From contig JAOTVL010000018.1 of the NCBI GenBank assembly GCA_029863525.1, positions 1 through 37,337 on the forward strand: a DNA stretch of 37,337 bases. Direction: 5' to 3'. Below are positions 7,788 through 36,230 of this stretch, piece by piece. Source of the stretch: Gemmatimonadota bacterium (GTDB taxonomy: Bacteria > Gemmatimonadota > Gemmatimonadetes > Longimicrobiales > Gaopeijiaceae). The notes beneath the pieces are model-generated. The model did no database searches, was not told the DNA's origin, and worked only from the letters and a program-made list of their open reading frames with translations. Each line of letters opens with the position of its first letter. The first letter of the stretch is position 1. The position numbers were made by a program, and so were the translations under genes.

Positions 7788-9001
7788 TATTCGTACCGGA
7801 GTGCGTCGATCGGATCGAGGATCGCGGCCCGCCGGGCAGGCCAGAGACCGAAGAAGAGCCCGACCGCGGCGGAGAAGACGATCGCGGTGATCACCGCCTC
7901 CGGAGCCACCGACGTGTCCCATTCGGCGAGCCGGGTTACGGCCTCGGACGCGGCATAGCCAGCGGCCACGCCGAGGAGTCCTCCGAGCGTGCACAAGAAG
8001 AGCGCCTCGACCAAGAACTGGGTCATGATGGCCCGCTTCGTGGCCCCCAGCGCCTTTCGAATACCGATCTCCCTCGTCCGCTCGGTGACGGAAACCAGCA
8101 TGATGTTCATGATCCCGATGCCGCCGACCAGGAGACTGATCGCGGCGATGCCGGCGAGCAGCAGCGCGAACGTCCTGTTCGCCTCGTTTCGGGTCTCCAA
8201 GAGGTCGGCCGAGTTGCGTACGTTGAAATCCGCGTCCTCTCCGACTTTGATCCTGTGCTCCCGGCGCATGATGCGGTCGATCTCCGCGAACCCCACGTCG
8301 AGCTCGTCGGGCGTCTCGGTGGCCGCGTAGATCGAGTTCAGGCGGTCGCGTCCCCCCATGACCCGATACTGAGCGGTCGACTGGGGAATGAAGATCTGGT
8401 CGTCGGGGCGCACCCAGGCCGCGTCCCCCTTCTCCTCGAGGATCCCGATCACCTCGAAGATGATGCCGCGAATCTGGATGTTCGCACCCACGAGGAGCTC
8501 GGGCGGGGTGTCGCCCAGCGTTTCGGGCAAGTTGGCCCCGAGCACCGCGAGGCGCCGTCTCCCCTGCACCTCGCCCTGGTCGAACCAGCGACCGGACTGC
8601 AGCTCGTGGCCGTACATCTCGAAATACTCGGGCCACACTCCCATGATCTGGGTGTTCGAGTTCCACCGGCCGTACGTGACCTGCATGCGGCTCTGTTGCT
8701 CGGGCGAGACGCGGAGCAGCCCATTGGACTCTGCACGGAGCGCGATCGCGTCGTCGATCGAAAGCTGAGCGTCGCCGCGTGAAACACCGCCCCACATCTG
8801 CTGACCGGGACGAATCGTGAGGATGCTGGTCCCCATGCGGTTGATCTCTTCCTGAACGCGTTGCTGGGCGCCCTCACCCAACGCGACCATCGTGATCACC
8901 GCCGCGATGCCGATGACGATACCGAGCGTGGTGAGCGCCGAGCGAAGCACGTTGGCACGCACTGCACCCATGGCCACCATGATGATCTCGAAGAGAAGCA
9001 T
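7787..9001 (-). CDS. MacB-type ABC transporter permease (FtsX fold)
   Basis: A 404-residue permease of the MacB/LolCE group. The N-terminal helix is at about 18-42 (RSALTTLGIVIGIAAVITMVALGEG). A large periplasmic MacB core domain runs to about 270. An FtsX domain of three helices follows (ALLLAGIAAISLLVGGIGIMN, then the LVSVTERTREIGIRKALGA cytoplasmic motif and two more helices), ending in DPIDALRYE. In these mechanotransmission transporters ATP hydrolysis moves the periplasmic domain to drive export of peptides, toxins or lipoproteins through a MacA-like adaptor. The adaptor gene lies 11 bases upstream on the same strand and the ATPase precedes that. Because the nucleotide-binding domain is separate, this is a split MacB. 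The substrate is unknown. Confidence 0.9.
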   Translation of the reverse strand: MLLFEIIMVAMGAVRANVLRSALTTLGIVIGIAAVITMVALGEGAQQRVQEEINRMGTSILTIRPGQQMWGGVSRGDAQLSIDDAIALRAESNGLLRVSPEQQSRMQVTYGRWNSNTQIMGVWPEYFEMYGHELQSGRWFDQGEVQGRRRLAVLGANLPETLGDTPPELLVGANIQIRGIIFEVIGILEEKGDAAWVRPDDQIFIPQSTAQYRVMGGRDRLNSIYAATETPDELDVGFAEIDRIMRREHRIKVGEDADFNVRNSADLLETRNEANRTFALLLAGIAAISLLVGGIGIMNIMLVSVTERTREIGIRKALGATKRAIMTQFLVEALFLCTLGGLLGVAAGYAASEAVTRLAEWDTSVAPEAVITAIVFSAAVGLFFGLWPARRAAILDPIDALRYE

Positions 9002-20837: not shown

Positions 20838-23800
20838 TCACGCCTGACTCACAAGCTCGGGGGTCAGGCTTGCGATCCGCTCCTGGATCGAGCGCACCTC
20901 CCTCGAGCGTGCCTTGAGCGCGATCAGCGCGTCGACCGCGGCCGACGTCGCGGACATGGTCGTCAGATAAGGGACGCCGTAGGTGATGGCCGCGCGGCGC
21001 ATGGCGTAGTCGTCGTACTGCGACTTCTTACCCAGCGGGGTGTTGATGAGCAGCGCGATGTCGCCCGTCACGATGTGGTCGACGATGTTGGGGCGGCCCT
21101 CCCCGACCTTGTACACCATCTCGGACCGGACCCCGAGCCGAGCCAGATCCTCGCGCGTTCCCTTCGTCGCCAGGAGCTCGAACCCGAGGTCGCGGAGTCG
21201 CCTGAGCATGGGCGTGACCGTGTTGCGGTCGCGATCGTTCACGGTGACGATGACCTTGCCCTTCTCGGGAAGCACGTTTCCCGCCGAGACCTGCGCCTTC
21301 GCGAACGCCATGCCGAAGGAGTCGTCGAAGCCCATGCACTCCCCGGTGGAGCGCATTTCCGGACCAAGCAGGACATCGACATCGAAGCGGTTGAACGGGA
21401 AGACGGCCTCCTTCACGGCGACGCCGGGGACTGGCGGCTCTTCGGGAACCCCCAGGTCGGCGAGCGTCTCCCCGACCATGATGCGCGAAGCGAGCCGCGC
21501 GAGCGGCACCCCGGTCGCCTTGCTCACGAAGGGGATGGTCCGGGACGCCCTCGGGTTGACCTCGAGCACGTAGACGATGCCGTCGCGGATGGCGTACTGA
21601 ACGTTCATGAGGCCGCGCACGCCGAGCTCGAGCGCGAACTTGCGCGTCAGGGCGCGGATCTCGTGGAGTGCGTCGGCTGAAAGGAGGTACGGTGGCAGCA
21701 CGCACGCCGAGTCCCCGGAGTGGACGCCCGCGTCTTCGATGTGCTGCATGATGCCCCCGATCACCACATCCGTCCCGTCGCTGAGCGCGTCGACGTCTGC
21801 CTCGAACGCGTCCTCGAGGAAGCGGTCGATGAGGACCGGATGGTCCGGCGAAGCTCGCACCGCGTCCACGAAATACTGCTCGAGCGACGGCTCGTCGTAG
21901 ATGATGCGCATCGCGCGGCCGCCGAGCACGTAGCTCGGCCGCACCAGGACGGGGAAGCCGATTCGGGCCGCGACTTGGAGCGCCTGCTCCTCGCTCGTGG
22001 CGATTCCGTTCTCGGGCGTCCGAGCGCCGATCTTTCGGCATACCTCGTCGAACCGATCGCGGTCTTCCGCCCGATCGATCGCGTCGACCGACGTGCCCAG
22101 TACGGGCGCACCGTGCGCCTCGAGGGCCTCTGCGAGCTTGAGCGGCGTCTGTCCTCCGAGCTGCACGATGATCCCCTTCGGCTTCTCGAGATGTAGCACC
22201 TCGAGCACGTCCTCGAGCGTCAACGACTCGAAATACAGCTTGTCGCTCACGTCGAAGTCGGTCGAGACCGTCTCGGGATTCGAGTTGATCATGATCGTCT
22301 CGAAGCCCGCCTCGCGGAGCGCGAGCACGGCTTGGACACAGCAGTAGTCGAACTCGATTCCTTGCCCGATCCGGTTCGGTCCACTCCCGAGGATCACCAC
22401 CTTGTCCCGGTCCGAGCGCACGCTCTCGCTTTCGTCCTCGTACGACGAATAGTAGTACGGAGTCTGCGCGGGAAACTCCCCGGCGCACGTATCGACGACG
22501 TTGAACGTGGCGTGGATGTTCCAACCCCAACGGCGTGCGCGGACGGCCTGCTCGTCCTCCCCTCGCAGCGCGCCCAGTTGTAGGTCGCTGAACCCTTCGC
22601 GCTTCATCGCGCGCGTGAGTTCGGGTGTGACCTCGTCGGCTTCGGCGTAGCGCCGCTCCCACTCGAGAATCTGGACGAGCTGATCGAGGAACCAACGATC
22701 GATCTTGGTGGCCTCGAAGATCTCCTCGACGGTGACGCCCGCTTCGAGTGCGCGCTTGATCTGGAAGGGTCGATTCGGCGTCGGGCGCCTCATCGCGGCA
22801 ATGAGTGTTCGCGGTTCGTCGTCCCCGAGTCCGTCCTCTTTCAGGTCGGATCCGACCACCCACCCGTGGCGCCCCGTCTCGAGCCCTCGGAAGCCCTTCT
22901 GCCAAGCGCTACGGAAGGTACGCCCGATGGCCATCGTCTCCCCGACGGCCTTCATCTGTACGCCGAGGGTGTCGTCCACGTCCCCGAACTTCTCGAACGC
23001 GAAGCGCGGGATCTTGACCACGACGTAATCGAGGACCGGTTCGAAGGAGGCGGGCGTCGTCTTCGTGATGTCGTTGGGGAGCTCGTGCAGGTGGTACCCG
23101 ACCGCGAGCTTGGCCCCGACTCGGGCGATGGGAAACCCGGTCGCCTTCGAGGCGAGCGCGGACGAGCGAGATACGCGCGGGTTCATCTCGACGACGAGAA
23201 GCTCCCCGTCGTCGGGGTTCACCGCGAACTGGATGTTGCAGCCGCCGGCCGCGACGCCGATCTCCCGGATAATCGCGATCGCCGCGTCCCGCATCTCTTG
23301 ATACTCGACGTCGGTGAGCGTCTGCGACGGCGCTACCGTGATGGAGTCCCCGGTGTGGACGCCCATCGGGTCCACGTTCTCGATCGAGCAGACGATGATG
23401 ACGTTGTCGATCGAGTCGCGCACCACCTCCAGCTCGTACTCCTTCCACCCTATGACGGAGCGGTCGATGAGCACCTCGGTGATGGGCGAAGCGTCGAGCC
23501 CCTTCCGAACCTGGGCCTCGAACTCCTCCCGGTTGTAGGCGATTCCGCCGCCGGTTCCGCCGAGCGTATACGACGGTCGCACGATCGCCGGGTACTCCGT
23601 CGACTCGACGATCTCGAGCGCTTCTTCGAGCGTGCGCGCGAAGCCGCCGGTCGGGACCTTGAGACCGATCCGGTGCATGGCCTCGGTGAACTTCTCGCGG
23701 TCCTCGGCCATCTCGATGGAGCGTTCGTTCGCCCCGATGAGCTCGACGCCATGCTTCTCGAGGATGCCCGCGTGATGGAGGTCCATCGCGACATTGAGTG

Positions 23801-24083
23801 CGGTCTGGCCACCCATGGTGGGCAGGAGCGCGTCGGGCTTCTCACGCTCGATGACTTTCTCCACCCACTCGGCCGTGATCGGTTCGATGTAGGTTCGATC
23901 CGCCAGATCGGGATCGGTCATGATCGTGGCCGGGTTCGAATTCACCAATACGACCCGGTAGCCCTCCTCCTTGAGGGCGCGCACCGCTTGGGTCCCGGAA
24001 TAGTCGAACTCGCAGGCCTGGCCGATGACAATCGGCCCGGAGCCCAGGATGAGAATGGTGTTTAGGTCGTCGCGACGGGGCAC
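20838..24083 (-). CDS. carB: Carbamoyl-phosphate synthase large subunit
   Basis: A 1081-residue protein, full length for CarB. It begins [21 protein letters not shown] from a GTG codon; the match to the family start supports that choice. The first ATP-grasp half contains [16 protein letters not shown] and [11 protein letters not shown]. The second half repeats it ([28 protein letters not shown]). A C-terminal MGS-like allosteric domain ends the protein ([15 protein letters not shown], then [14 protein letters not shown]). It makes carbamoyl phosphate from glutamine-derived ammonia, bicarbonate and two ATP for arginine and pyrimidine synthesis. The small subunit carA is not adjacent or in this window. 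A 38-residue membrane-protein gene ends 42 bases upstream, so carB may be co-transcribed with it. Confidence 0.97.
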
Positions 24084-24125: not shown

Positions 24126-24242
24126 CTACCCATCCCCGTCCTTTCCGGATTCCTTACGGATGGCGGTGGAGAGCACCAGGAAGAAACCGCCCCATACGAA
24201 TGCCATGATCACGATCATGGTGATCCATGTCGATGGCGTCAT
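24126..24242 (-). CDS. 38-residue membrane protein, NSS-transporter small-subunit (MetS)-like
   Basis: A short gene read directly from the sequence: MTPSTWITMIVIMAFVWGG, then a hydrophobic FFLVLSTAI, and a polar tail RKESGKDGDG. One transmembrane helix spans about residues 6-28. The central WGG inside the helix and the charged C-terminus resemble MetS-type small subunits of neurotransmitter:sodium symporters. The ATG at 24242 has a GGAG ribosome site 8 bases upstream, which strongly supports translation. It sits between the lipoprotein gene and carB on the same strand. The only NSS transporter visible lies at 30455-31921. Family membership is inference from a short sequence; another one-helix accessory protein is possible. 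Confidence 0.6.
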   Translation of the reverse strand: MTPSTWITMIVIMAFVWGGFFLVLSTAIRKESGKDGDG

Positions 24243-24346
24243 GGGCGGATCTCCGGCTCGCGGCGGCCGATGTGGTCAGTGTTCGAGGGGGTTTCGGCGA
24301 GGCCGCGACTTCGTCCCCGCGAGGGTTCGAAAACGGCCCGCGTAAC

Positions 24347-24733
24347 CTAGCGCTCCGACCGGATCGTGACCAGCGAACGTCGTATCGCTTCATTGTCCCC
24401 GTTCGCGGCCGAGACCACACGCACCAATGGGCCTTCCATGCCCAGGTCGTCGACCTGCACGTCGAGGGCCATGGAGCCGGGTTCGGGGTCGATCATCACG
24501 ACGCGGTGCACGCCTTGACGACCCGCGACGGTCGCCGAGTAGACACGGGCGGACCCACGAGCGGTGAAGCTCCGAATGCCGGGGCCCTCCACCTCGAGCA
24601 CGACGCCGCCGAGTGATGGCCCCTCCGCGGTCAGCGTGATGGCGCCGGGGCCCTTCGGTCCCGAGTCGCACCCCGCGAGCCCCCCCACCCCAAGCAGCGC
24701 GAGCGCCGTCAGCGCCATGCGGACGCCCCTCAT
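24347..24733 (-). CDS. Small lipoprotein, unknown function
   Basis: A 128-residue lipoprotein with signal MRGVRMALTALALLGVGG and lipobox LAGC (Cys22). The mature part looks like a beta-sandwich: repeated short strands such as GGVVLEVEGPGIRSF and ARVYSATVAGRQGVHRVVMI. It ends in RRSLVTIRSER. I do not recognise the family; a cohesin-like or carbohydrate-binding-like fold is possible but not shown. The ATG at 24733 overlaps the M6 protease stop (ATGA), so it is translated with that protease and may bind, anchor or inhibit it. The 104 bases to the next small gene hold nothing I can assign. Confidence 0.7.
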   Translation of the reverse strand: MRGVRMALTALALLGVGGLAGCDSGPKGPGAITLTAEGPSLGGVVLEVEGPGIRSFTARGSARVYSATVAGRQGVHRVVMIDPEPGSMALDVQVDDLGMEGPLVRVVSAANGDNEAIRRSLVTIRSER

Positions 24734-27333
24734 GGGTGCCCCCCCGGATTCGGGCGCGAAGACGGCCAGGCGGCGTCGCCCGGGGAAGCCGGCTGCTCCC
24801 CGCGCGGCGGCGCCCCACCCTCCGTCGTCCCGACGATCACGGTCCGTCGGAACACCCCATCCCCCATCGACGCACTGAGCGGCAGGGTCGGGTCGGAGAG
24901 CACCCACTGCCTGAAATCACCGATGTCGTAGGGTGCCACGCGGTTCCCCTGTCGGTTCAGGAAGTTGATCTGGGCGGAAGTCAGCTGGGGTCCCGTGAGG
25001 AGGAACGGAGAGGCGAGCTGCTCGATCGACAATTCCGGCGCCACCAGCTCGAGCGTGACCGTTCCCGTCCCCGGGAGTCCGATCGCGTCGACGGCCTCGA
25101 GCGTCAGTGCGAACGTACCGAGGTCCAGCGCCTCGCCCGAGATCTCGCCGCCACGCGACAGGGTGAGGCCCGTAGGCATCGTACCCGCGACCACGCGCCA
25201 CGCGGCGGGCGCGGTTCCGTTTTCGATTTCCAGTTGGACCTGCAGCGGCGTCGCCGCCGGGAGCTCGACGCTCGTGTCGGGCACCCGGTAGACCAGCTCG
25301 AAGGCGGCGACGGCGGAGAGGGGCGCATTCATCGTGAACGATGCCGGATTCCCCTGCCCTGCGAGGTCTCCGCTCCAAGACTGGAAGAGGTACCCTGGCG
25401 TCGGAATCACTTCGAGCGTCACGGCGGCACCATCGGAGTACCAGAGGTCCTCGGAGGCGGGGTCGCTTTCGAACGTCGCCGGTTCGACGGCGTTCACCGC
25501 TCCACTCGTAGTCAACGTGAACTCGAACTGGGTCCCGCCGTAGTTGGCCACGAAGCTCGTGTCGGCGAGGGGTGTCACGATCGATCGGGAACGCGGCGCC
25601 AGGGTGTCGTCCGACCACTCGAGGAACGGGCGCCGCTCGCCGGGGCCCACGCTCTCGCCCGCCACGGCCTCGATGGTGTGAGACACGAACGGCGCCGACT
25701 GGAAGGCTGTTTCCGGAGGATCGACCTGCTGGCCGTTCACCGTGAAGATCCCGTCTGATCCCGCGGTCCCCTGCGCGTCGAGGGTAAGCGTCGTGAAGCG
25801 CGTGGATGCACGCAGCGAGACGTCGTCGCCGACGAGCTGGATGTCGAAGAGCGTCACGCCCGTGACCCCGCCGCCGAAGGAGATCGCGCCCGGGGTCGTC
25901 GTGGCGTGGAAGGCGGTATTCGACAGGGACCCCGGGAAGGGATCGGAGGAGTCGCCGCGGCCGAAGCCCGAGCCCAACTCGTCGAGGCCGTCCGCCTGCC
26001 GCAGCCAAACACCCTGGTGCTCGTTGGCGTTGACCCGGTTCGGCGGCCATCGGTCCAGGACCCAATCCTCGTCGATCTGCCACACGAGGAGCCCTTCATT
26101 GTAGACGTTCTGGTCGAAGCCGATCCGCTGACGGTTCTCGAGCAGGAAGTACTCCCCGGACCCGTCGTTCGCATCGATGCGATAGACCGTGCCGTCGGTC
26201 TCGACCGGGGGGATCGTGATCGTCCCGTGGTCCGTATCGGGGGCGAGCCCAACCACGTCGACCCAGCCGAGCATGGCCTTGCTCCAGGCGCCGAGGTGAC
26301 ACGGCAAATTCGGCGACGCGTTATTGCAGCCCCACGAACCCGACGCCATGAGGTCCCATATGCCCGCCCCACTCGTACGGGCGAAATCGTCCGGGCACTC
26401 ACTGCCGCCGTTGCACGTGTCGTACAGGTCGGGCAGGCCGAAGGCGTGCCCGAGCTCGTGCGTGAAGACGCCGATCTCGTTGAGCACTCCGCCCGTGCAC
26501 GCGATCGACGGCTGGATCGTGTAGTCGTTGACCCGGACGAACCCGCCCCCGGGTCGAGGGGTCGTCGTTTCGTAGATCGTCCCCACTGCGGATGCGAGCG
26601 ACCAGCGGTGGGACCAGATTCTGTCGTCGCTCCCCGACCCGCCGCACTCCCCACCCCGCGTGGGGTGGATGACCGCGAGGACGTCCACGTACCCGTCGTC
26701 GTCGCCGGAGTTGGGATCGCCGTCTGGCCCGTCATTGTCGTACTGACCCCAATCCACGCTCCCCGACTGGAGCTCGAGCAGCTCGTAGACGAAGTTGCCG
26801 GCTCCACCGCCTCCGAGTGCCCCGCCCACGAGTCCGCTCTCACCGACCGTGTACGCAGTGTCGGGCCGGGCGGTCTGGACCCAATCGAGGACGTCGCCGT
26901 TCAGCGTGGCCCGCCCGTTCGAGACCTCCGTGTAGTAGGCCGTGATCGTACCGGCTGCGGCCCCGAAGTAGGCGTCCTCGATCGTCGGCTGGTCGAAGGG
27001 TGGCGTACCGCCCGAGTTGCCGTACATGCCCAGTACGACCGGAATGCGATACGTACCGAGCACCGGGTCCCTCGGGCCGAGGCTCCTCGCGGGTCCCCCT
27101 CCACTCACACCCTCGAACGAGCGGAGATTCAGCGTCTCCGAGCCTCTCATCCCGCCCCGGAACTCGAAGGCGGTCGGGTCGGCCCGCTTCGTGCGCTCGT
27201 AACCGGCGGGCACCGGGGTCCCGTAGCGCTCGCCGAGCATTTCGACGTCTTGCGCCGAGACGCCGACGGCGGGCGCGAGGAGCGCGGTCGCGAGGAGCGC
27301 GGTCGCGACCAGAATCGAAAGAGTTCGGTGCAT
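24730..27333 (-). CDS. M6-family secreted metalloprotease
   Basis: An 867-residue exported protein with a signal peptide ending near VGVSAQ. The InhA/M6-type peptidase domain contains zinc motif HELGHAFGLPDLYD (His292, Glu293, His296, Asp302), preceded by FGAAAGTITAYYTEVSNGRA and an Asp-rich possible calcium site DNDGPDGDPNSGDDDGYVD around 199-217. The domain continues through CHLGAWSKAMLGWVD. The C-terminal third has a bacterial repeat of the InlB-B type (FQSWSGDLAGQGNPASF) and an Ig-like module (AAWRVVAGTMPTGLTLSRGG) that may bind surfaces. It is probably secreted or surface-attached and degrades extracellular protein. The start at 27333 is chosen for the signal peptide. It is co-translated with the following lipoprotein. 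Confidence 0.9.
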   Translation of the reverse strand: MHRTLSILVATALLATALLAPAVGVSAQDVEMLGERYGTPVPAGYERTKRADPTAFEFRGGMRGSETLNLRSFEGVSGGGPARSLGPRDPVLGTYRIPVVLGMYGNSGGTPPFDQPTIEDAYFGAAAGTITAYYTEVSNGRATLNGDVLDWVQTARPDTAYTVGESGLVGGALGGGGAGNFVYELLELQSGSVDWGQYDNDGPDGDPNSGDDDGYVDVLAVIHPTRGGECGGSGSDDRIWSHRWSLASAVGTIYETTTPRPGGGFVRVNDYTIQPSIACTGGVLNEIGVFTHELGHAFGLPDLYDTCNGGSECPDDFARTSGAGIWDLMASGSWGCNNASPNLPCHLGAWSKAMLGWVDVVGLAPDTDHGTITIPPVETDGTVYRIDANDGSGEYFLLENRQRIGFDQNVYNEGLLVWQIDEDWVLDRWPPNRVNANEHQGVWLRQADGLDELGSGFGRGDSSDPFPGSLSNTAFHATTTPGAISFGGGVTGVTLFDIQLVGDDVSLRASTRFTTLTLDAQGTAGSDGIFTVNGQQVDPPETAFQSAPFVSHTIEAVAGESVGPGERRPFLEWSDDTLAPRSRSIVTPLADTSFVANYGGTQFEFTLTTSGAVNAVEPATFESDPASEDLWYSDGAAVTLEVIPTPGYLFQSWSGDLAGQGNPASFTMNAPLSAVAAFELVYRVPDTSVELPAATPLQVQLEIENGTAPAAWRVVAGTMPTGLTLSRGGEISGEALDLGTFALTLEAVDAIGLPGTGTVTLELVAPELSIEQLASPFLLTGPQLTSAQINFLNRQGNRVAPYDIGDFRQWVLSDPTLPLSASMGDGVFRRTVIVGTTEGGAPPRGEQPASPGDAAWPSSRPNPGGHP
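27275..27304. repeat. 15-base tandem duplication in the M6 signal peptide
   Basis: GCGAGGAGCGCGGTC occurs twice without a gap (27275-27289, 27290-27304). On the coding strand it makes ATALL-ATALL in the hydrophobic core of the signal peptide, so the copy number changes its length in steps of five residues without a frameshift. Confidence 0.85.
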
Positions 27334-27373
27334 CAGAAACGTGAGAGGAGAGCGGACGACGGGCACCGGTCGG

Positions 27374-27448
27374 GTAGGACCCCTCGACCTACACGATCTG
27401 CGAGCGACGGGTTCCTGGCAGACGGCGGTCGACCGGTCCTCTGGTCGA
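27374..27448. promoter_or_regulatory. Two inverted repeats upstream of the M6 gene
   Basis: GTAGG/CCTAC (27374-27378, 27388-27392; 9-base spacer) and TCGACC/GGTCGA (27429-27434, 27443-27448; 8-base spacer) lie 41-115 bases before the M6 start. They may be operators or 5'-leader hairpins. The first arm is the same core as the dyad at 5156-5175, which may be coincidence. Nothing else is recognisable in the 216-base gap 27334-27549. Confidence 0.25.
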
Positions 27449-27549
27449 AGGTGCCTCATGGATGAATGTGTCACGCCGGGTGACCGGGTCGGAAGAATTT
27501 CGAATCCGCGCCGTGGGTACCCGGGTCTTCGCGGTGAGGACCCCGAGGG

Positions 27550-28893: not shown

Positions 28894-29679
28894 CTAAGCT
28901 ACGAGGGAGACACGTGTAAAAGGCAGCGCGGAAGCGCGCGGCCCCTCGCGATCGAGATCGGCGGGAGGCTGGAAACGCTGAGTTGCGTGCGGGGCGCTCT
29001 CGACGTAGGCGAAGAACCGTGCAAGCAGCATGAACACTTCGCCGGGCGTTTCGACCCCGTACAACCCGTCGATGTCGGAGCCGGGCAGGTCGGTGGAGAA
29101 GTCCCCGCCCTCTTCCCTCGCGTCGAGCTCCAGCCAAGTGGACGCGTCTTCGATCGGCGCTGCGGGGAGCGGCACGATGCCCAGGCCTGGCCGGTCGGGG
29201 CGAACCCCCGTAACGACCAACGTGTGGAGAACCCGAGCCCTCGAGGCGCACCAGAAGATCCCGTCGATCGACTCGGGCGCGTCTCCGGCGGCCGCGGTCC
29301 AGAAAAGGTGTTGTGGGAGCTGTAAATATCCTGCCGAAGGGTTCGGCCTGGGCTGTCCCGACGGCGCGCCTTCGACGAGGTACCGCGCCACGTGTGTGCT
29401 CACGAGGAATACGGGTTGGTCGGCCTCGTGGAATCGGACGCCGTGAAACGCCAGCGGCCCGAACCGCCGCAGCGCGGCCGGATCGTGCTCGGAGTCGGCG
29501 AGCGAGCGCACGAAGGTCTCGACCGCCCCCAACGTCATGAACCCGTCGAGGGTCTCCGGGTCGACGCCACGCGCCGCCCCTTCGATCCGAACGGCCTCCG
29601 CCAAGGGACCCGCCCGACCTTGCTCGGGGAACGCGAGCTCATACGGTGTCGTTCGGGCGTAGGCGTCGTGCAGTGACAT
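28894..29679 (-). CDS. Uncharacterised protein
   Basis: A 261-residue protein I do not recognise. It begins MSLHDAYARTTPYELAFPE with no signal peptide. The middle has strands such as PVFLVSTHVARYLVEGAP and AGYLQLPQHLFWTAA, then RVLHTLVVTGVRPDRPGLGI. An acidic stretch (LDAREEGGDF, DLPGSDIDGLYG) is followed by a helix EVFMLLARFFAYVESAPH. No known catalytic motif is visible. Its stop is 11 bases before nth on the same strand, so it probably shares a transcript with the repair enzyme. A structure search rather than sequence would be needed to place it. Confidence 0.7.
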   Translation of the reverse strand: MSLHDAYARTTPYELAFPEQGRAGPLAEAVRIEGAARGVDPETLDGFMTLGAVETFVRSLADSEHDPAALRRFGPLAFHGVRFHEADQPVFLVSTHVARYLVEGAPSGQPRPNPSAGYLQLPQHLFWTAAAGDAPESIDGIFWCASRARVLHTLVVTGVRPDRPGLGIVPLPAAPIEDASTWLELDAREEGGDFSTDLPGSDIDGLYGVETPGEVFMLLARFFAYVESAPHATQRFQPPADLDREGPRASALPFTRVSLVA

Positions 29680-29719: not shown

Positions 29720-30448
29720 TCACGGATCGAGAGGTTGGGCCTCGGCCTCCCACTCGGCGACGGTAGGTCGGGTCAGTCCGAGGGTGCGCCTGAGGTTCTC
29801 CCACCATCCCGCCGAACGGACCACGACCAATTCGACTGTCCCATCGCGGTCCCCTAGGCCGTCGAGCAGCACGAAATGCACATCCGCCGCCTCCGCCGGG
29901 GTTGGAACCCGGTACCGTCGGCCTTCCCACTCGAACTCGATCGACGCGTCGTGCTCGAGCGCGTGGCCCGGGAGCTCCACCTCGATGTACCAGCTGCCCT
30001 CGACTTGATAGACGCCCGGCGATCGCTCTTCGCCGTGCTGGTAGTACCAGGGGTCGAACGGGTCTCCGTCGAAGCGCTTGAACGACTGGTCCGCCGCATA
30101 GTCGACACCTTCGAGCGCGTCGTCTCCCGCCAACGATTCTAGGTGATGCCTCAGCTCGTGCGTGAGCGTCTCCCATGCCTCGCCCTCCCAGTCGAAGTCC
30201 TCGTGCTGGTTGGCCAAGGCTCGGAAGGAGCCCCAGTAGAGCGCGATGACGGAGCGTGTGGTCTCGGCGCTCCCGTAGTCCGATAGATGCTCTTCCGTGA
30301 GGCACTCGCCGAGCGTGTACACACCCGGGTGGTCCGGATGCCTCGGTGCGTCTCGCGAAACCCTCAGGCCGTCCACACCGTCGCGGTACACGTCGGGTAT
30401 CTCGTCGTAAATCTCGCGCGCCATCCGCTCGAACGCTTCGAAGGTCAC
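29720..30448 (-). CDS. Zincin-like metallopeptidase
   Basis: A 242-residue cytoplasmic protein. The first 105 residues match minimal zincin-like metallopeptidases: MTFEAFERMAREIYDEIPD, an IALYWGSF strand, and the zinc motif THELRHHLESLAG with His97, Glu98 and His101. The family is usually about 120-150 residues. The additional C-terminal part (residues about 130-242), with an SWYIEVELPGHALEHDA strand and EWEGRRYRVPTP, is unlike the minimal form. Substrates are unknown for the family. It begins 6 bases after the NSS-transporter stop, so it is probably co-transcribed with the transporter. Confidence 0.75.
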   Translation of the reverse strand: MTFEAFERMAREIYDEIPDVYRDGVDGLRVSRDAPRHPDHPGVYTLGECLTEEHLSDYGSAETTRSVIALYWGSFRALANQHEDFDWEGEAWETLTHELRHHLESLAGDDALEGVDYAADQSFKRFDGDPFDPWYYQHGEERSPGVYQVEGSWYIEVELPGHALEHDASIEFEWEGRRYRVPTPAEAADVHFVLLDGLGDRDGTVELVVVRSAGWWENLRRTLGLTRPTVAEWEAEAQPLDP

Positions 30449-30454
30449 CGGCTG

Positions 30455-31921
30455 TCAATCGCCCGCAGGCTGCGCGCCTCCGGATTGCACGGCCGAGGCC
30501 AGTCGCTTGTTGAGCGTCAAAAGGACCACGAGAACGATCGCGAACTGGATGACCACCGAACCGACGTTGTACGGACTGAAGAGCGTCCACGTCTCGCGAA
30601 AGTCGTCACCGCGAGCAGCCCACAGGAACCAGACCGCGAGGAAGACCGCCTCGAAGGCCACCAGGCGGATCGCCCAGTCCCACCATCGACCGATGTGGAT
30701 GTCGGAGCCCTCCTGATTGATGAACGTCTCTCGCCACTTCGTCACCCCGTAGCGCAGGACGGCGAAAGCGAAGAAGAAGCCGCTCAGCATGAGCGCGACT
30801 CCCCACACCCAGTCCTGGTTCTGAAAGACCTCCAGCTTGAGCGCGCTCGGGATTCCGAAGAGGAGGCCCGCGGCGCCGACCACCTTGATGGCCGGCCCAC
30901 GCTCGACACCCAGATCCTGGAGGAGTCGGGAAGCCAGCTCGATCATCGCCACGAGGCTCGTCCACGCGGCGAACACGAGGGCGAGAAAGAAGAGCGCCTG
31001 GAAGAAGCGCCCACCTGGGATCTGCTGAAACAGTTGGGGCACCCAGATGAAGGTCAGGCCCTCATTGCCGGAGGTCGCCAGCATCTGCGTCGCCTCCGCG
31101 GCCGGCATGACCGAGAAGACGGTACAGAGCACCATGATCCCCGCGAGGAGCGACATGGAGTTGTTCCCGAACCCGATGACGAATGCGTTGAGCGCGGTGT
31201 CCTCGTTCGCGCGCATGTAGATCGCGTACGTGAGCACGAGACCCCAGCCCGCGCCGGTGTCCCACGCGTTCTGGGTGAGTGCCTCGATCCAGATCGAGTA
31301 GTTCGCCAGCTCCGAAAGGCTCGGCGTGAAGAGGAAGGTCAGCCCCGCCGACGCATTCGGGAGTGTCAGCGCCCGGACCGCGAGCACGATCACGAGCACG
31401 ATCAAGCTCGGGATCAGCACCTTGGCGGCGGTCTCGATGCCCCGGACACCCTTGGAGACCACGAAGAGCGCCATACCCATCGCGATCGCGTGCGTGACGA
31501 TAGCGCCGGGTGTCGAATGGAAGCCGTCCCAGAACGCGCTCGGTGTGGCGCCGGGTACCTCGCCTGTGAGCGTGCCCACGAAGAAGCGGATCGTCCACCC
31601 CATGACCACGCTGTAGTAGAACATGATCGCCGTGGCCACGAAGGCGATCCACGCGCCCATCCACGCGAAGGCCGGACCGAGCGTCTTCACGAAGGCCCCG
31701 ATCGAGCCCTGGCGCGTTGCCTTGCCCATCCCGAATTCGAGGATCAGCAAGGGCACGGACCACGCGAGGAGGAATACGACCCAGGCGACGAGAAAGCTGC
31801 CGCCGCCGTTGCTCGCGGCAATGCGCGGGAAGCGCCAGATGTTACCCGTCCCCACCGCCATGCCGAGCATGGCGAGGAGCATGCCCCATCGGGAGCTGAA
31901 GACTTCGGACTTCGACGACAC
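30455..31921 (-). CDS. Sodium-dependent transporter (NSS/SNF family)
   Basis: A 488-residue transporter with about twelve hydrophobic helices. Helix 1 carries the unwound sodium and substrate site GMAVGTGNIWRFPR, and GGGSFLVAW follows in helix 2. Helices 6-8 carry the expected NAWDTGAGWG, GFGNNSMSL and LAGIMVLCTVFSVM segments. It should import an amino acid or related amine with sodium. The GTG at 31921 is chosen: GGAG lies 7 bases upstream, and the protein then begins SSKSEVFSSRWGML, the usual family start. An in-frame GTG at 31960 would add 13 basic residues. The likely small partner subunit is not adjacent; a candidate lies at 24126-24242. Confidence 0.92.
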   Translation of the reverse strand: MSSKSEVFSSRWGMLLAMLGMAVGTGNIWRFPRIAASNGGGSFLVAWVVFLLAWSVPLLILEFGMGKATRQGSIGAFVKTLGPAFAWMGAWIAFVATAIMFYYSVVMGWTIRFFVGTLTGEVPGATPSAFWDGFHSTPGAIVTHAIAMGMALFVVSKGVRGIETAAKVLIPSLIVLVIVLAVRALTLPNASAGLTFLFTPSLSELANYSIWIEALTQNAWDTGAGWGLVLTYAIYMRANEDTALNAFVIGFGNNSMSLLAGIMVLCTVFSVMPAAEATQMLATSGNEGLTFIWVPQLFQQIPGGRFFQALFFLALVFAAWTSLVAMIELASRLLQDLGVERGPAIKVVGAAGLLFGIPSALKLEVFQNQDWVWGVALMLSGFFFAFAVLRYGVTKWRETFINQEGSDIHIGRWWDWAIRLVAFEAVFLAVWFLWAARGDDFRETWTLFSPYNVGSVVIQFAIVLVVLLTLNKRLASAVQSGGAQPAGD

Positions 31922-32035
31922 GGACGCACTCCGGCGGGCGGTGAGCAGACGCCTTCGCACAGTGGCGCGGAGGCTGATTCATCGATGACGGTGTTCCGTC
32001 ATGCCGATGACGTCGGAACGGCGGAGAGTATAGGC

Positions 32036-34470: not shown

Positions 34471-34914
34471 CTATTCGAAGATGTAGCCGACCGCCTGCGC
34501 GGCCTGCTCGAGCGTCTCCACGGTGAGCGTCGCCAGCGCGTCGAGCTCCTTGAGCGCATGGATGTGCTCCTCGGCTCGGACCAGCAACAGCGGCAGCCCG
34601 CTCGCAACGGCCGCCCCGGCGTCCGATGCGGTATTCCACTGCTTGTACTTGGGTCCGAAGAAGGCGATGCACAGGTCGGCCCGCTGCATGAGCACGCGCG
34701 TGCGAAGCGTGTTCACCCGCGCGCCCATGAGATCACGGTAACGTGGACCTGGTTGTGTCCCGAGAATGTCCTCACCCACCGAGTCCGAACGGTCGTGGGC
34801 CTCTTGGGGCCCGACGACCTCCGCCTCGATGCCCAGACGCTCCAAGTAGCCTCGGAGCTCTTCTCGCCAATCGGAGTGGATCTCTCCCGCCGCGTAGATC
34901 ACGATGTCGCCCAT
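34471..34914 (-). CDS. ytoQ: YtoQ-family protein
   Basis: A 147-residue protein strongly resembling Bacillus YtoQ. It has the AGEIHSDWREEL start, GPQEAHDRSDSVGEDILG, NTLRTRVLMQRADLCIAFFG, and FGPKYKQWNTASDAGAAVA, ending in AVGYIFE. The fold is of the nucleoside 2-deoxyribosyltransferase-like type (Rossmann-like with AD pockets), but its reaction is not known. The length matches the family. Its ATG overlaps the glycyl-tRNA synthetase stop as TAATG, so the two are translationally coupled. A link between YtoQ and tRNA charging is not established; the coupling may only reflect compact packing. Confidence 0.9.
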   Translation of the reverse strand: MGDIVIYAAGEIHSDWREELRGYLERLGIEAEVVGPQEAHDRSDSVGEDILGTQPGPRYRDLMGARVNTLRTRVLMQRADLCIAFFGPKYKQWNTASDAGAAVASGLPLLLVRAEEHIHALKELDALATLTVETLEQAAQAVGYIFE

Positions 34915-36230
34915 TACGCCAGCCGTTCACGAATCCAAGACACGACCTGATCACCCGAGATCCGCACCTGCTCCAACGAGTCTCGGTCACGGACGGTGAC
35001 CGTCCCATTCTCGACGGTCTCCCCGTCCACCGTGACGCACCACGGCGTTCCGACCTCGTCCTGGCGCCGGTAGCGACGTCCGATGGCTCCGGACTGGTCG
35101 TAGAACGACGGGATGGCCGCGGCCCTCAAGTCCTCGCTGAGCTTCTGAGCGATCTCGGGCATGCCGTCCTTCTTCACGAGCGGAAACACGGCTGCCTTGG
35201 TCGGCGCAAGCGAAGGATTGAGCGCGAGTACGACGCGCGTCTCTCCCTCGATTTCCTCCTCGCGATACGCGTCTGCGAGAACCACGAGCGCGGTGCGATC
35301 CACGCCCATCGATGTCTCGATGACGTACGGGATGAACCGCTCGTTCGTCGGCGCATCGATGTACTCGAGGCGCTTGCCCGAGAACTCCTGATGTCGGGAC
35401 AGGTCGTAATCGGTTCGATTGTGAATCCCCTCGAATTCCTTCCAGCCGAACGGGAACTCGTACTCGATGTCGAAGGCCTTCTTGGCGTAGTGCGCGAGCT
35501 CGTCGGATCCGTGCTCGTGGAAGCGGAGCTTGTCCGCCCGGATGCCGAGGTCCTTGTGCCACTGCATTCGGATCTGCATCCAGCGCTCGAACCACTCCTC
35601 GTCGTCCCCCGGCTTCACGAAGAACTGCATCTCCGCCTGCTCGAACTCGCGTGTACGGAAGATGAAGTTCCCGGGCGTGATTTCGTTGCGGAACGCCTTC
35701 CCGATCTGTGCGATGCCGAAGGGGACCTTCTGCCGAGAAGCGCCCTGGACGTTGAGGAAGTTCACATAGATGCCTTGGGCGGTCTCTGGCCGAATGTAGA
35801 CCGTCGCCGACGAGTCCTCGACGGGCCCCATGAACGTCTTGAACATGAGGTTGAACATTCGGGGCTCGGTGAACGCCTCCTTCGTTCCGCACACCGGGCA
35901 CTGTCCACCCTCGACCTCGGGCAAGTCTGCCCGAAAGCGTCGGTGGCAGTTCGTGCACTCCACCAGCGGGTCCGTGAAGCCGTCGACGTGGCCGGACGCC
36001 TCCCACACCCGTGGGTGCATCAGGATCGCGGCGTCCAGCCCCTCGATGTCGTCCCGCTCGTGCACCATCGACGACCACCAGCGGTCCTTGATGTTGCGCT
36101 TCAGCTCCACACCCAGCGGACCGTAGTCCCAGACCGATCCCGTACCGCCGTAGATCTCGGAGGACTGGAAAACGTATCCGCGTCGTTTGGCCAGTGAAAC
36201 GAGCTTGTCCATCAGGTCGGCGTCGGCCAT
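34914..36230 (-). CDS. glyS: Glycyl-tRNA synthetase (dimeric, eukaryote-like type)
   Basis: A 438-residue class II synthetase charging tRNA-Gly. It starts MADADLMDKLVSLAKRRGYV, with GSVWDYGPLG motif 1 region and Zn-type Cys92/95 and Cys111/114. Class II motif 2 is FRNEITPGNFIFRTREFEQ and motif 3 is MGVDRTALVVLAD. The C-terminal anticodon-binding domain contains LNPSLAPTKAAVFPL. This is the single-chain alpha2 form, not the alpha/beta tetramer of many proteobacteria. The start ATG at 36230 has a 206-base divergent region to nfuA. The stop overlaps ytoQ by one base. Confidence 0.96.
   Translation of the reverse strand: MADADLMDKLVSLAKRRGYVFQSSEIYGGTGSVWDYGPLGVELKRNIKDRWWSSMVHERDDIEGLDAAILMHPRVWEASGHVDGFTDPLVECTNCHRRFRADLPEVEGGQCPVCGTKEAFTEPRMFNLMFKTFMGPVEDSSATVYIRPETAQGIYVNFLNVQGASRQKVPFGIAQIGKAFRNEITPGNFIFRTREFEQAEMQFFVKPGDDEEWFERWMQIRMQWHKDLGIRADKLRFHEHGSDELAHYAKKAFDIEYEFPFGWKEFEGIHNRTDYDLSRHQEFSGKRLEYIDAPTNERFIPYVIETSMGVDRTALVVLADAYREEEIEGETRVVLALNPSLAPTKAAVFPLVKKDGMPEIAQKLSEDLRAAAIPSFYDQSGAIGRRYRRQDEVGTPWCVTVDGETVENGTVTVRDRDSLEQVRISGDQVVSWIRERLA

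What the first reader, a model, noticed from the sequence alone, without database searches (positions are those of the whole stretch)
24126..24242. Orphan MetS-like small membrane subunit between a lipoprotein gene and carB
A 38-residue, one-helix protein with a WGG helix core and a GGAG ribosome site is encoded in a place where no NSS gene is adjacent. The only NSS transporter in the window is 6 kb away on the same strand. Small subunits of this type are normally next to their transporter, so either the partner is distant or this is a new type of short membrane protein co-expressed with carB. Seen: the frame, ribosome site and motif. Inferred: the family.
Basis: partly seen in the sequence, partly recalled or inferred. 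Interest (0 to 1): 0.6.

Follow-up and report, generated by a model that had tools for sequence, protein, structure and literature searches.

The report
Transporter helper gene parted from partner
The 38-residue membrane protein is a real, conserved gene, most likely the small helper subunit (MetS type) of the sodium-driven amino-acid transporter encoded 6 kb away; the two genes have drifted apart on the chromosome but are kept and lost together, which ties a lone tiny gene to its partner.

Summary
A 38-codon ORF lies on the minus strand (24242..24126), with GGAG 8 nt before ATG, one hydrophobic helix and a WGG core. It is real: orthologs occur in 95 of 298 sampled genomes of the phylum (uncultured Gemmatimonadota), with synonymous changes well above nonsynonymous. 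It scores full length on the NCBIfam MetS-like model (23.5 bits, cut-off 25); several orthologs pass. The small gene is found with the ortholog of the window's NSS transporter in 93 genomes; 2 have only the small gene, 2 only the transporter, 201 neither. In two other Gemmatimonadota families, in KSB1 and in some Acidobacteriota it sits within about 35 bp downstream of that same transporter. In three relatives transporter and small gene are both cleanly missing, from two sites a few kb apart, with genes between them in place. carB stays when the small gene goes, so a carB function is unlikely. In Acidobacteriota the pair has parted separately: the small gene stays between thiE and aroK while the transporter lies elsewhere. 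Physical binding and substrate are inferred, not shown. Known family; unusual arrangement.

The parts
24126..24242 (-). MetS-like small subunit gene, 38 aa, one helix (about residues 6-28), WGG core, basic C-terminal tail RKESGK
24251..24254 (-). GGAG ribosome-binding site, 8 nt before the ATG; G-rich site at this place in most relatives
30455..31960 (-). NSS (SNF family) sodium-dependent transporter, inferred partner of the small subunit
   Evidence: PF00209 E=5e-55; NF037979 93 bits, cut-off 50; co-occurrence and synteny
20838..24083 (-). carB, carbamoyl-phosphate synthase large subunit; neighbour of the small gene in this family, not its partner
   Evidence: NF003671 1644 bits; stays when the small gene is lost
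24347..24733 (-). lipoprotein gene (LAGC lipobox), no known family; immediate upstream neighbour
24730..27474 (-). M6-type metalloprotease gene; lies between NSS and small gene
   Evidence: TIGR03296 and PF05547
27550..28119 (-). HDIG-domain protein gene between NSS and small gene
   Evidence: TIGR00277
28232..28900 (-). endonuclease III-like (nth) gene between NSS and small gene
   Evidence: PF00730
28894..29679 (-). gene of unknown family between NSS and small gene, conserved in the cluster
   Evidence: no Pfam hit; syntenic in relatives
29720..30448 (-). zincin-like metallopeptidase gene directly after NSS; joins glyS directly where NSS is deleted
   Evidence: PF06262, just under cut-off
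34914..36230 (-). glycyl-tRNA synthetase-like (glyS) gene, upstream flank of the NSS site in relatives; name from my reading of the sequence
   Evidence: synteny

Best explanation
The ORF encodes a one-helix MetS-type accessory subunit of the NSS sodium-coupled (probably amino-acid) transporter encoded 6 kb upstream on the same strand. Shown: the gene is real and under purifying selection; its presence tracks this one NSS subfamily; in other lineages the same two genes are immediate neighbours; and they are lost together even from separate sites. Inferred: the two proteins form a complex, in which the helix (basic tail presumably inside, by the positive-inside rule) packs through its WGG face against the transporter and is needed for its assembly or activity, as I recall for MetS with MetP in Corynebacterium. 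In this family the genes have been separated: other genes lie between them and the small gene sits before carB. Co-transcription along the co-directional array is possible but untested. The substrate is unknown.
For: Profile: NF033493 full length, 23.5 bits, E=3.2e-5; other orthologs pass the cut-off, e.g. 29.7 (G037), 30.4 (family f4), 38.9 (KSB1); all 38 aligned members hit it at E<=1. Co-occurrence with the window-NSS ortholog in 298 phylum genomes: 93 both, 2 small only, 2 NSS only, 201 neither, Fisher p=2e-72 (relatedness not removed); the four exceptions are assemblies in 230-830 contigs. Canonical adjacency, small gene within about 35 bp of the NSS: families f5 and f6, Acidobacteriota and KSB1. 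Joint loss: in G205, G040 and G045 glyS abuts the zincin gene without NSS, and the small gene is missing before carB, with nth and HD between them in place; in G027, G035 and G039 the NSS next to the zincin gene is a 44-46% divergent type and no small gene is found. On a carB tree the losses need 8 changes; in supported independent pairs they go together in about 4 and never oppositely. 17 of 18 genomes with the NSS ortholog reached through named records, in three phyla, have exactly one small gene.
Against: The window protein is 1.5 bits under the NF033493 cut-off and well under PF16951 and NF033494. The genes are not adjacent here, and in G052 (one 4.1 Mb contig) they lie about 950 kb apart. 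NSS orthologs with an insert near residue 290 (families f6, f7, part of f3) have no detectable small gene. The phylogenetic sign test has few independent pairs (p about 0.125). One genome that holds the NSS (G348) had no small-gene match. No biochemical data.
Confidence: 0.88

Rival explanations
1. A carB-linked small membrane protein: it anchors or regulates carbamoyl-phosphate synthase or is simply co-expressed with carB.
For: All 30 best orthologs lie directly upstream of carB, and the linkage holds across families f1, f2 and part of f3.
Against: carB and its upstream neighbours stay when the small gene is lost (G205, G309, G027, G277, G014, G040). The small gene is found without carB next to it in f5, f6, f9, G065, Acidobacteriota and KSB1. 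Its presence follows NSS instead.
Confidence: 0.04
2. It serves several NSS transporters of the cell, or a different NSS paralog, not mainly the one in the window.
For: The window's genome shows 8 NSS match pieces, so probably about 4 NSS genes, and only one small gene.
Against: Genomes with only other NSS types (G027, G035, G039, G277, G028, G047) lack the small gene, and where it is adjacent to an NSS the neighbour is the ortholog of the window's NSS (49-62% identity, against 31% for the paralog on contig C14).
Confidence: 0.07
3. A spurious ORF inside an intergenic region.
For: Short; below the curated cut-off.
Against: Protein-level conservation across phyla, mean pS 0.48 against pN 0.10, conserved ribosome site, profile hit.
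Confidence: 0.01

Closest known systems
MetS family NSS transporter small subunits (NCBIfam NF033493; the MetP/MetS pair of Corynebacterium glutamicum, Trotschel et al. 2008, Biochemistry, doi 10.1021/bi801206t, cited in PMC3219685 and PMC5105988)
   Same: One-helix protein of 36-45 aa, full-length alignment to the model, WGG core, found with an NSS transporter; immediate neighbour of that transporter in related lineages.
   Different: In this Gemmatimonadota family the gene is 1.5 to over 30 kb (once about 950 kb) from the transporter and next to carB; shorter than the C. glutamicum type (the MetS equivalog model has 53 positions); window copy 1.5 bits under the subfamily cut-off.
Pfam PF16951 MaAIMP_sms, putative methionine and alanine importer small subunit
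   Same: N-terminal half aligns (profile positions 2-30 of 60).
   Different: 15.9 bits against a cut-off of 26.2; the second half of the model is absent.
Other tiny one-helix accessory subunits of membrane complexes (class comparison from general knowledge)
   Same: A single short helix that goes with one large membrane protein.
   Different: No sequence relationship tested or claimed.

Membership tests
NF033493 MetS_like_NSS small subunit | Score over the curated cut-off of 25 bits | tested here: inconclusive
   Window copy 23.5 bits, full length. Of ten relatives scanned six pass (25.1, 28.2, 29.7, 30.4, 31.7, 38.9), two fall just short (22.4, 23.0) and two well short (13.1, 13.5)
NF033493 MetS_like_NSS small subunit | Short one-helix protein with the conserved core | tested here: met
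   38 aa, one hydrophobic segment about 6-28; W17 G18 G19 invariant in 38 orthologs
NF033493 MetS_like_NSS small subunit | Occurs with an NSS transporter | tested here: met
   93 of 95 small-gene genomes carry the window-NSS ortholog
NF033493 MetS_like_NSS small subunit | Gene next to the NSS gene (usual, not strictly defining) | tested here: not met
   6.2 kb away in the window; adjacent in f5, f6, KSB1 and part of Acidobacteriota
NF033493 MetS_like_NSS small subunit | Physical subunit needed for transport | not testable with these tools
   No biochemical data; complexes cannot be folded here
NF033494 methionine/alanine import subunit MetS (equivalog) | Score over 70 bits | tested here: not met
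   15.8 bits
PF16951 MaAIMP_sms | Score over 26.2 bits | tested here: not met
   15.9 bits, half of the model
NSS/SNF transporter (partner) | PF00209 over cut-off | tested here: met
   187.6 bits, cut-off 27

The most novel reading that the evidence does not exclude
The separation is functional: by sitting before carB (Gemmatimonadota) or before aroK (Acidobacteriota), the small subunit came under the control of biosynthetic genes, so that synthesis of the tiny subunit alone switches the distant transporter on or off with nitrogen, pyrimidine or aromatic metabolism.
Probability: 0.07. Interest if true: 0.6.

Novelty: new variant of a known kind. Interest (0 to 1): 0.4.

Why it matters
Accessory subunits this short are missed by annotation and are usually recognised by sitting next to their transporter. 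Here the pair is separated in two phyla yet kept and lost together. That is genetic evidence, independent of operon structure, that the helix belongs to one NSS subfamily. It also offers natural contrasts (small-bearing NSS against NSS types without a small gene) for finding what the small subunit does, which as far as I know is largely open for bacterial NSS proteins.

Tried and rejected
A link to carB: rejected by loss with carB intact and by placement elsewhere. A second small gene in the genome: none. G082 as the one genome with small gene but no NSS: spurious, inside a longer ORF. The insert in NSS orthologs without a small gene as a fused small subunit: the insert looks soluble, not a helix with WGG. 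Solved structures: none of a MetS-like chain; the only weak hits are short stretches of ammonia monooxygenase subunit B; the NSS matches bacterial and animal NSS entries such as 4us3 and 2a65. Promoter and terminator scan across NSS to carB: uninformative, one promoter-like match against 0.6 expected. A genome-contig search with the small-protein alignment was not possible, so the NSS was used. Literature searches gave the C. glutamicum MetPS citation but no account of separated pairs.

Full report
Observation. The stated coordinates hold a 38-codon frame on the minus strand (24242..24126): MTPSTWITMIVIMAFVWGGFFLVLSTAIRKESGKDGDG. GGAG stands 8 nt before the ATG. The frame starts 104 nt after a lipoprotein gene and ends 42 nt before carB. 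One hydrophobic segment spans about residues 6-28; the C-terminal tail is basic. Of 71 ORFs of 30-60 aa in the window it is the only one with such a segment.

Family. NCBIfam NF033493 (MetS family NSS transporter small subunit) matches over its whole length, residues 1-30, E=3.2e-5, 23.5 bits against a cut-off of 25; Pfam PF16951 gives a weak half-length match. All 38 aligned orthologs hit NF033493 at E<=1. Of ten relatives scanned one by one, six reach the cut-off (25.1 to 38.9 bits), two fall just short (22.4, 23.0) and two well short (13.1 and 13.5, both directly adjacent to the NSS).

Reality of the gene. Orthologs occur in 56 of 98 close relatives (after removing G082). Mean pairwise pS/pN is 0.48/0.10 in the genus and 0.58/0.22 in the family; codon position 3 varies most. 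W17, G18, G19, A27 and E31 are invariant in 38 orthologs. The genome is an uncultured Gemmatimonadota; the nearest named matches are Gemmatimonadales/Longimicrobiales MAGs.

Neighbourhood. In the window's family (f1) the order glyS - NSS - (zincin) - unknown - nth - HD - (M6 - lipoprotein) - small - carB is largely conserved, on one strand, with the NSS mostly 1.5 to 12 kb upstream. It can be further: about 33 kb in G041 and about 950 kb in G052. In f9 the cluster holds NSS and small gene, but carB is not next to it. In f4 the two lie from a few to tens of kb apart or on different contigs. In f5 and f6 the small gene follows the NSS directly, and likewise in KSB1 (18 bp) and four Acidobacteriota loci (9-27 bp).

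Co-occurrence. In 298 genomes of the phylum, 93 have both the ortholog of the window's NSS and the small gene, 2 the small gene only (G209, G326), 2 the NSS only (G015, G276), 201 neither. I classed an NSS as ortholog if it matched in one piece at about 480 bits or more, or, for G321, as a 67% fragment at a contig end; weak matches covering only 20-23 positions (family f7) were not counted as small genes. These choices were made after seeing the tables. A further 35 relatives fit the same pattern apart from exceptions in incomplete or fragmented assemblies: G010 and G089 (small gene only) and G024, G050, G055, G080 (NSS only); G077 has the small gene with an insert-bearing NSS.

Joint loss. 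In G205 glyS (ending at 8887) is followed directly by zincin (8919), with no NSS, and the lipoprotein gene (14713) by carB (14858), with no small gene; nth, HD, M6 and lipoprotein are all in place. G040 and G045 also lack both, with nth and HD in place. In G027, G035 and G039 an NSS of a different, 44-46% identical type sits beside the zincin gene, and no small gene is found. On a carB tree (quick method) presence of each gene needs 8 changes; in supported independent pairs they change together in about 4, never oppositely; with so few pairs the sign test cannot reach 0.05. This is the strongest evidence, because a shared neighbourhood does not easily explain two separate clean gaps with the genes between them in place.

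A second separation. The Acidobacteriota genomes searched whose NSS ortholog has no small gene nearby all have one elsewhere. Where the NSS is adjacent, the order is accC - thiE - NSS - small - aroK (L243, L244, L245, L255); in others it is accC - thiE - small - aroK (L284, L285, L288), with the NSS at another place in the genome. So there the transporter appears to have moved and the small gene stayed.

Mechanism. Shown: a real gene, a profile resemblance, and a tight genetic link to one NSS subfamily. Inferred: a physical complex in which the helix is required for assembly or activity of the transporter, by analogy with MetPS; my memory of that work was not checked in full text, and the open papers only cite it as a two-subunit NSS system. 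Substrate and membrane topology are inferred at best. The position before carB in this family looks like a neighbourhood accident, though shared expression is not excluded.

Limits. E-values in whole-genome searches are per genome. Many genomes are incomplete. The Fisher test does not remove relatedness. NSS orthologs with an insert near residue 290 lack the small gene almost throughout, which I cannot explain.

Noticed in passing
L164-L173 (G113, G107, G137, G165, G178, G316, G327, G130, G061, G300): NSS orthologs about 50-66% identical to the window's carry an insert of roughly 35-100 residues after about residue 288, in what should be extracellular loop 4; none of these ten genomes has a detectable small gene. 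G077 has both.
   Followed up: partly
L281-L288: In Acidobacteriota the lone small gene lies beside shikimate kinase (aroK), with thiE and accC upstream where the locus is complete; the NSS lies elsewhere in the genome.
   Followed up: yes
L175, L176, L177: A 44-46% identical NSS of another type occupies the glyS/zincin site in three relatives that lack the small gene, as if the transporter was replaced in place.
   Followed up: partly
L137, L138, L141 (family f7): Weak MetS-like short frames follow a different NSS (23-27% identical to the window's), the usual arrangement for the family.
   Followed up: no
window 28894-29679, minus strand: A 261-residue protein with no Pfam match is conserved across the cluster.
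   Followed up: no
window 24347-27474, minus strand: An M6-type metalloprotease gene and a short lipoprotein gene of no known family mostly occur together in the cluster and are both absent from some relatives.
   Followed up: no
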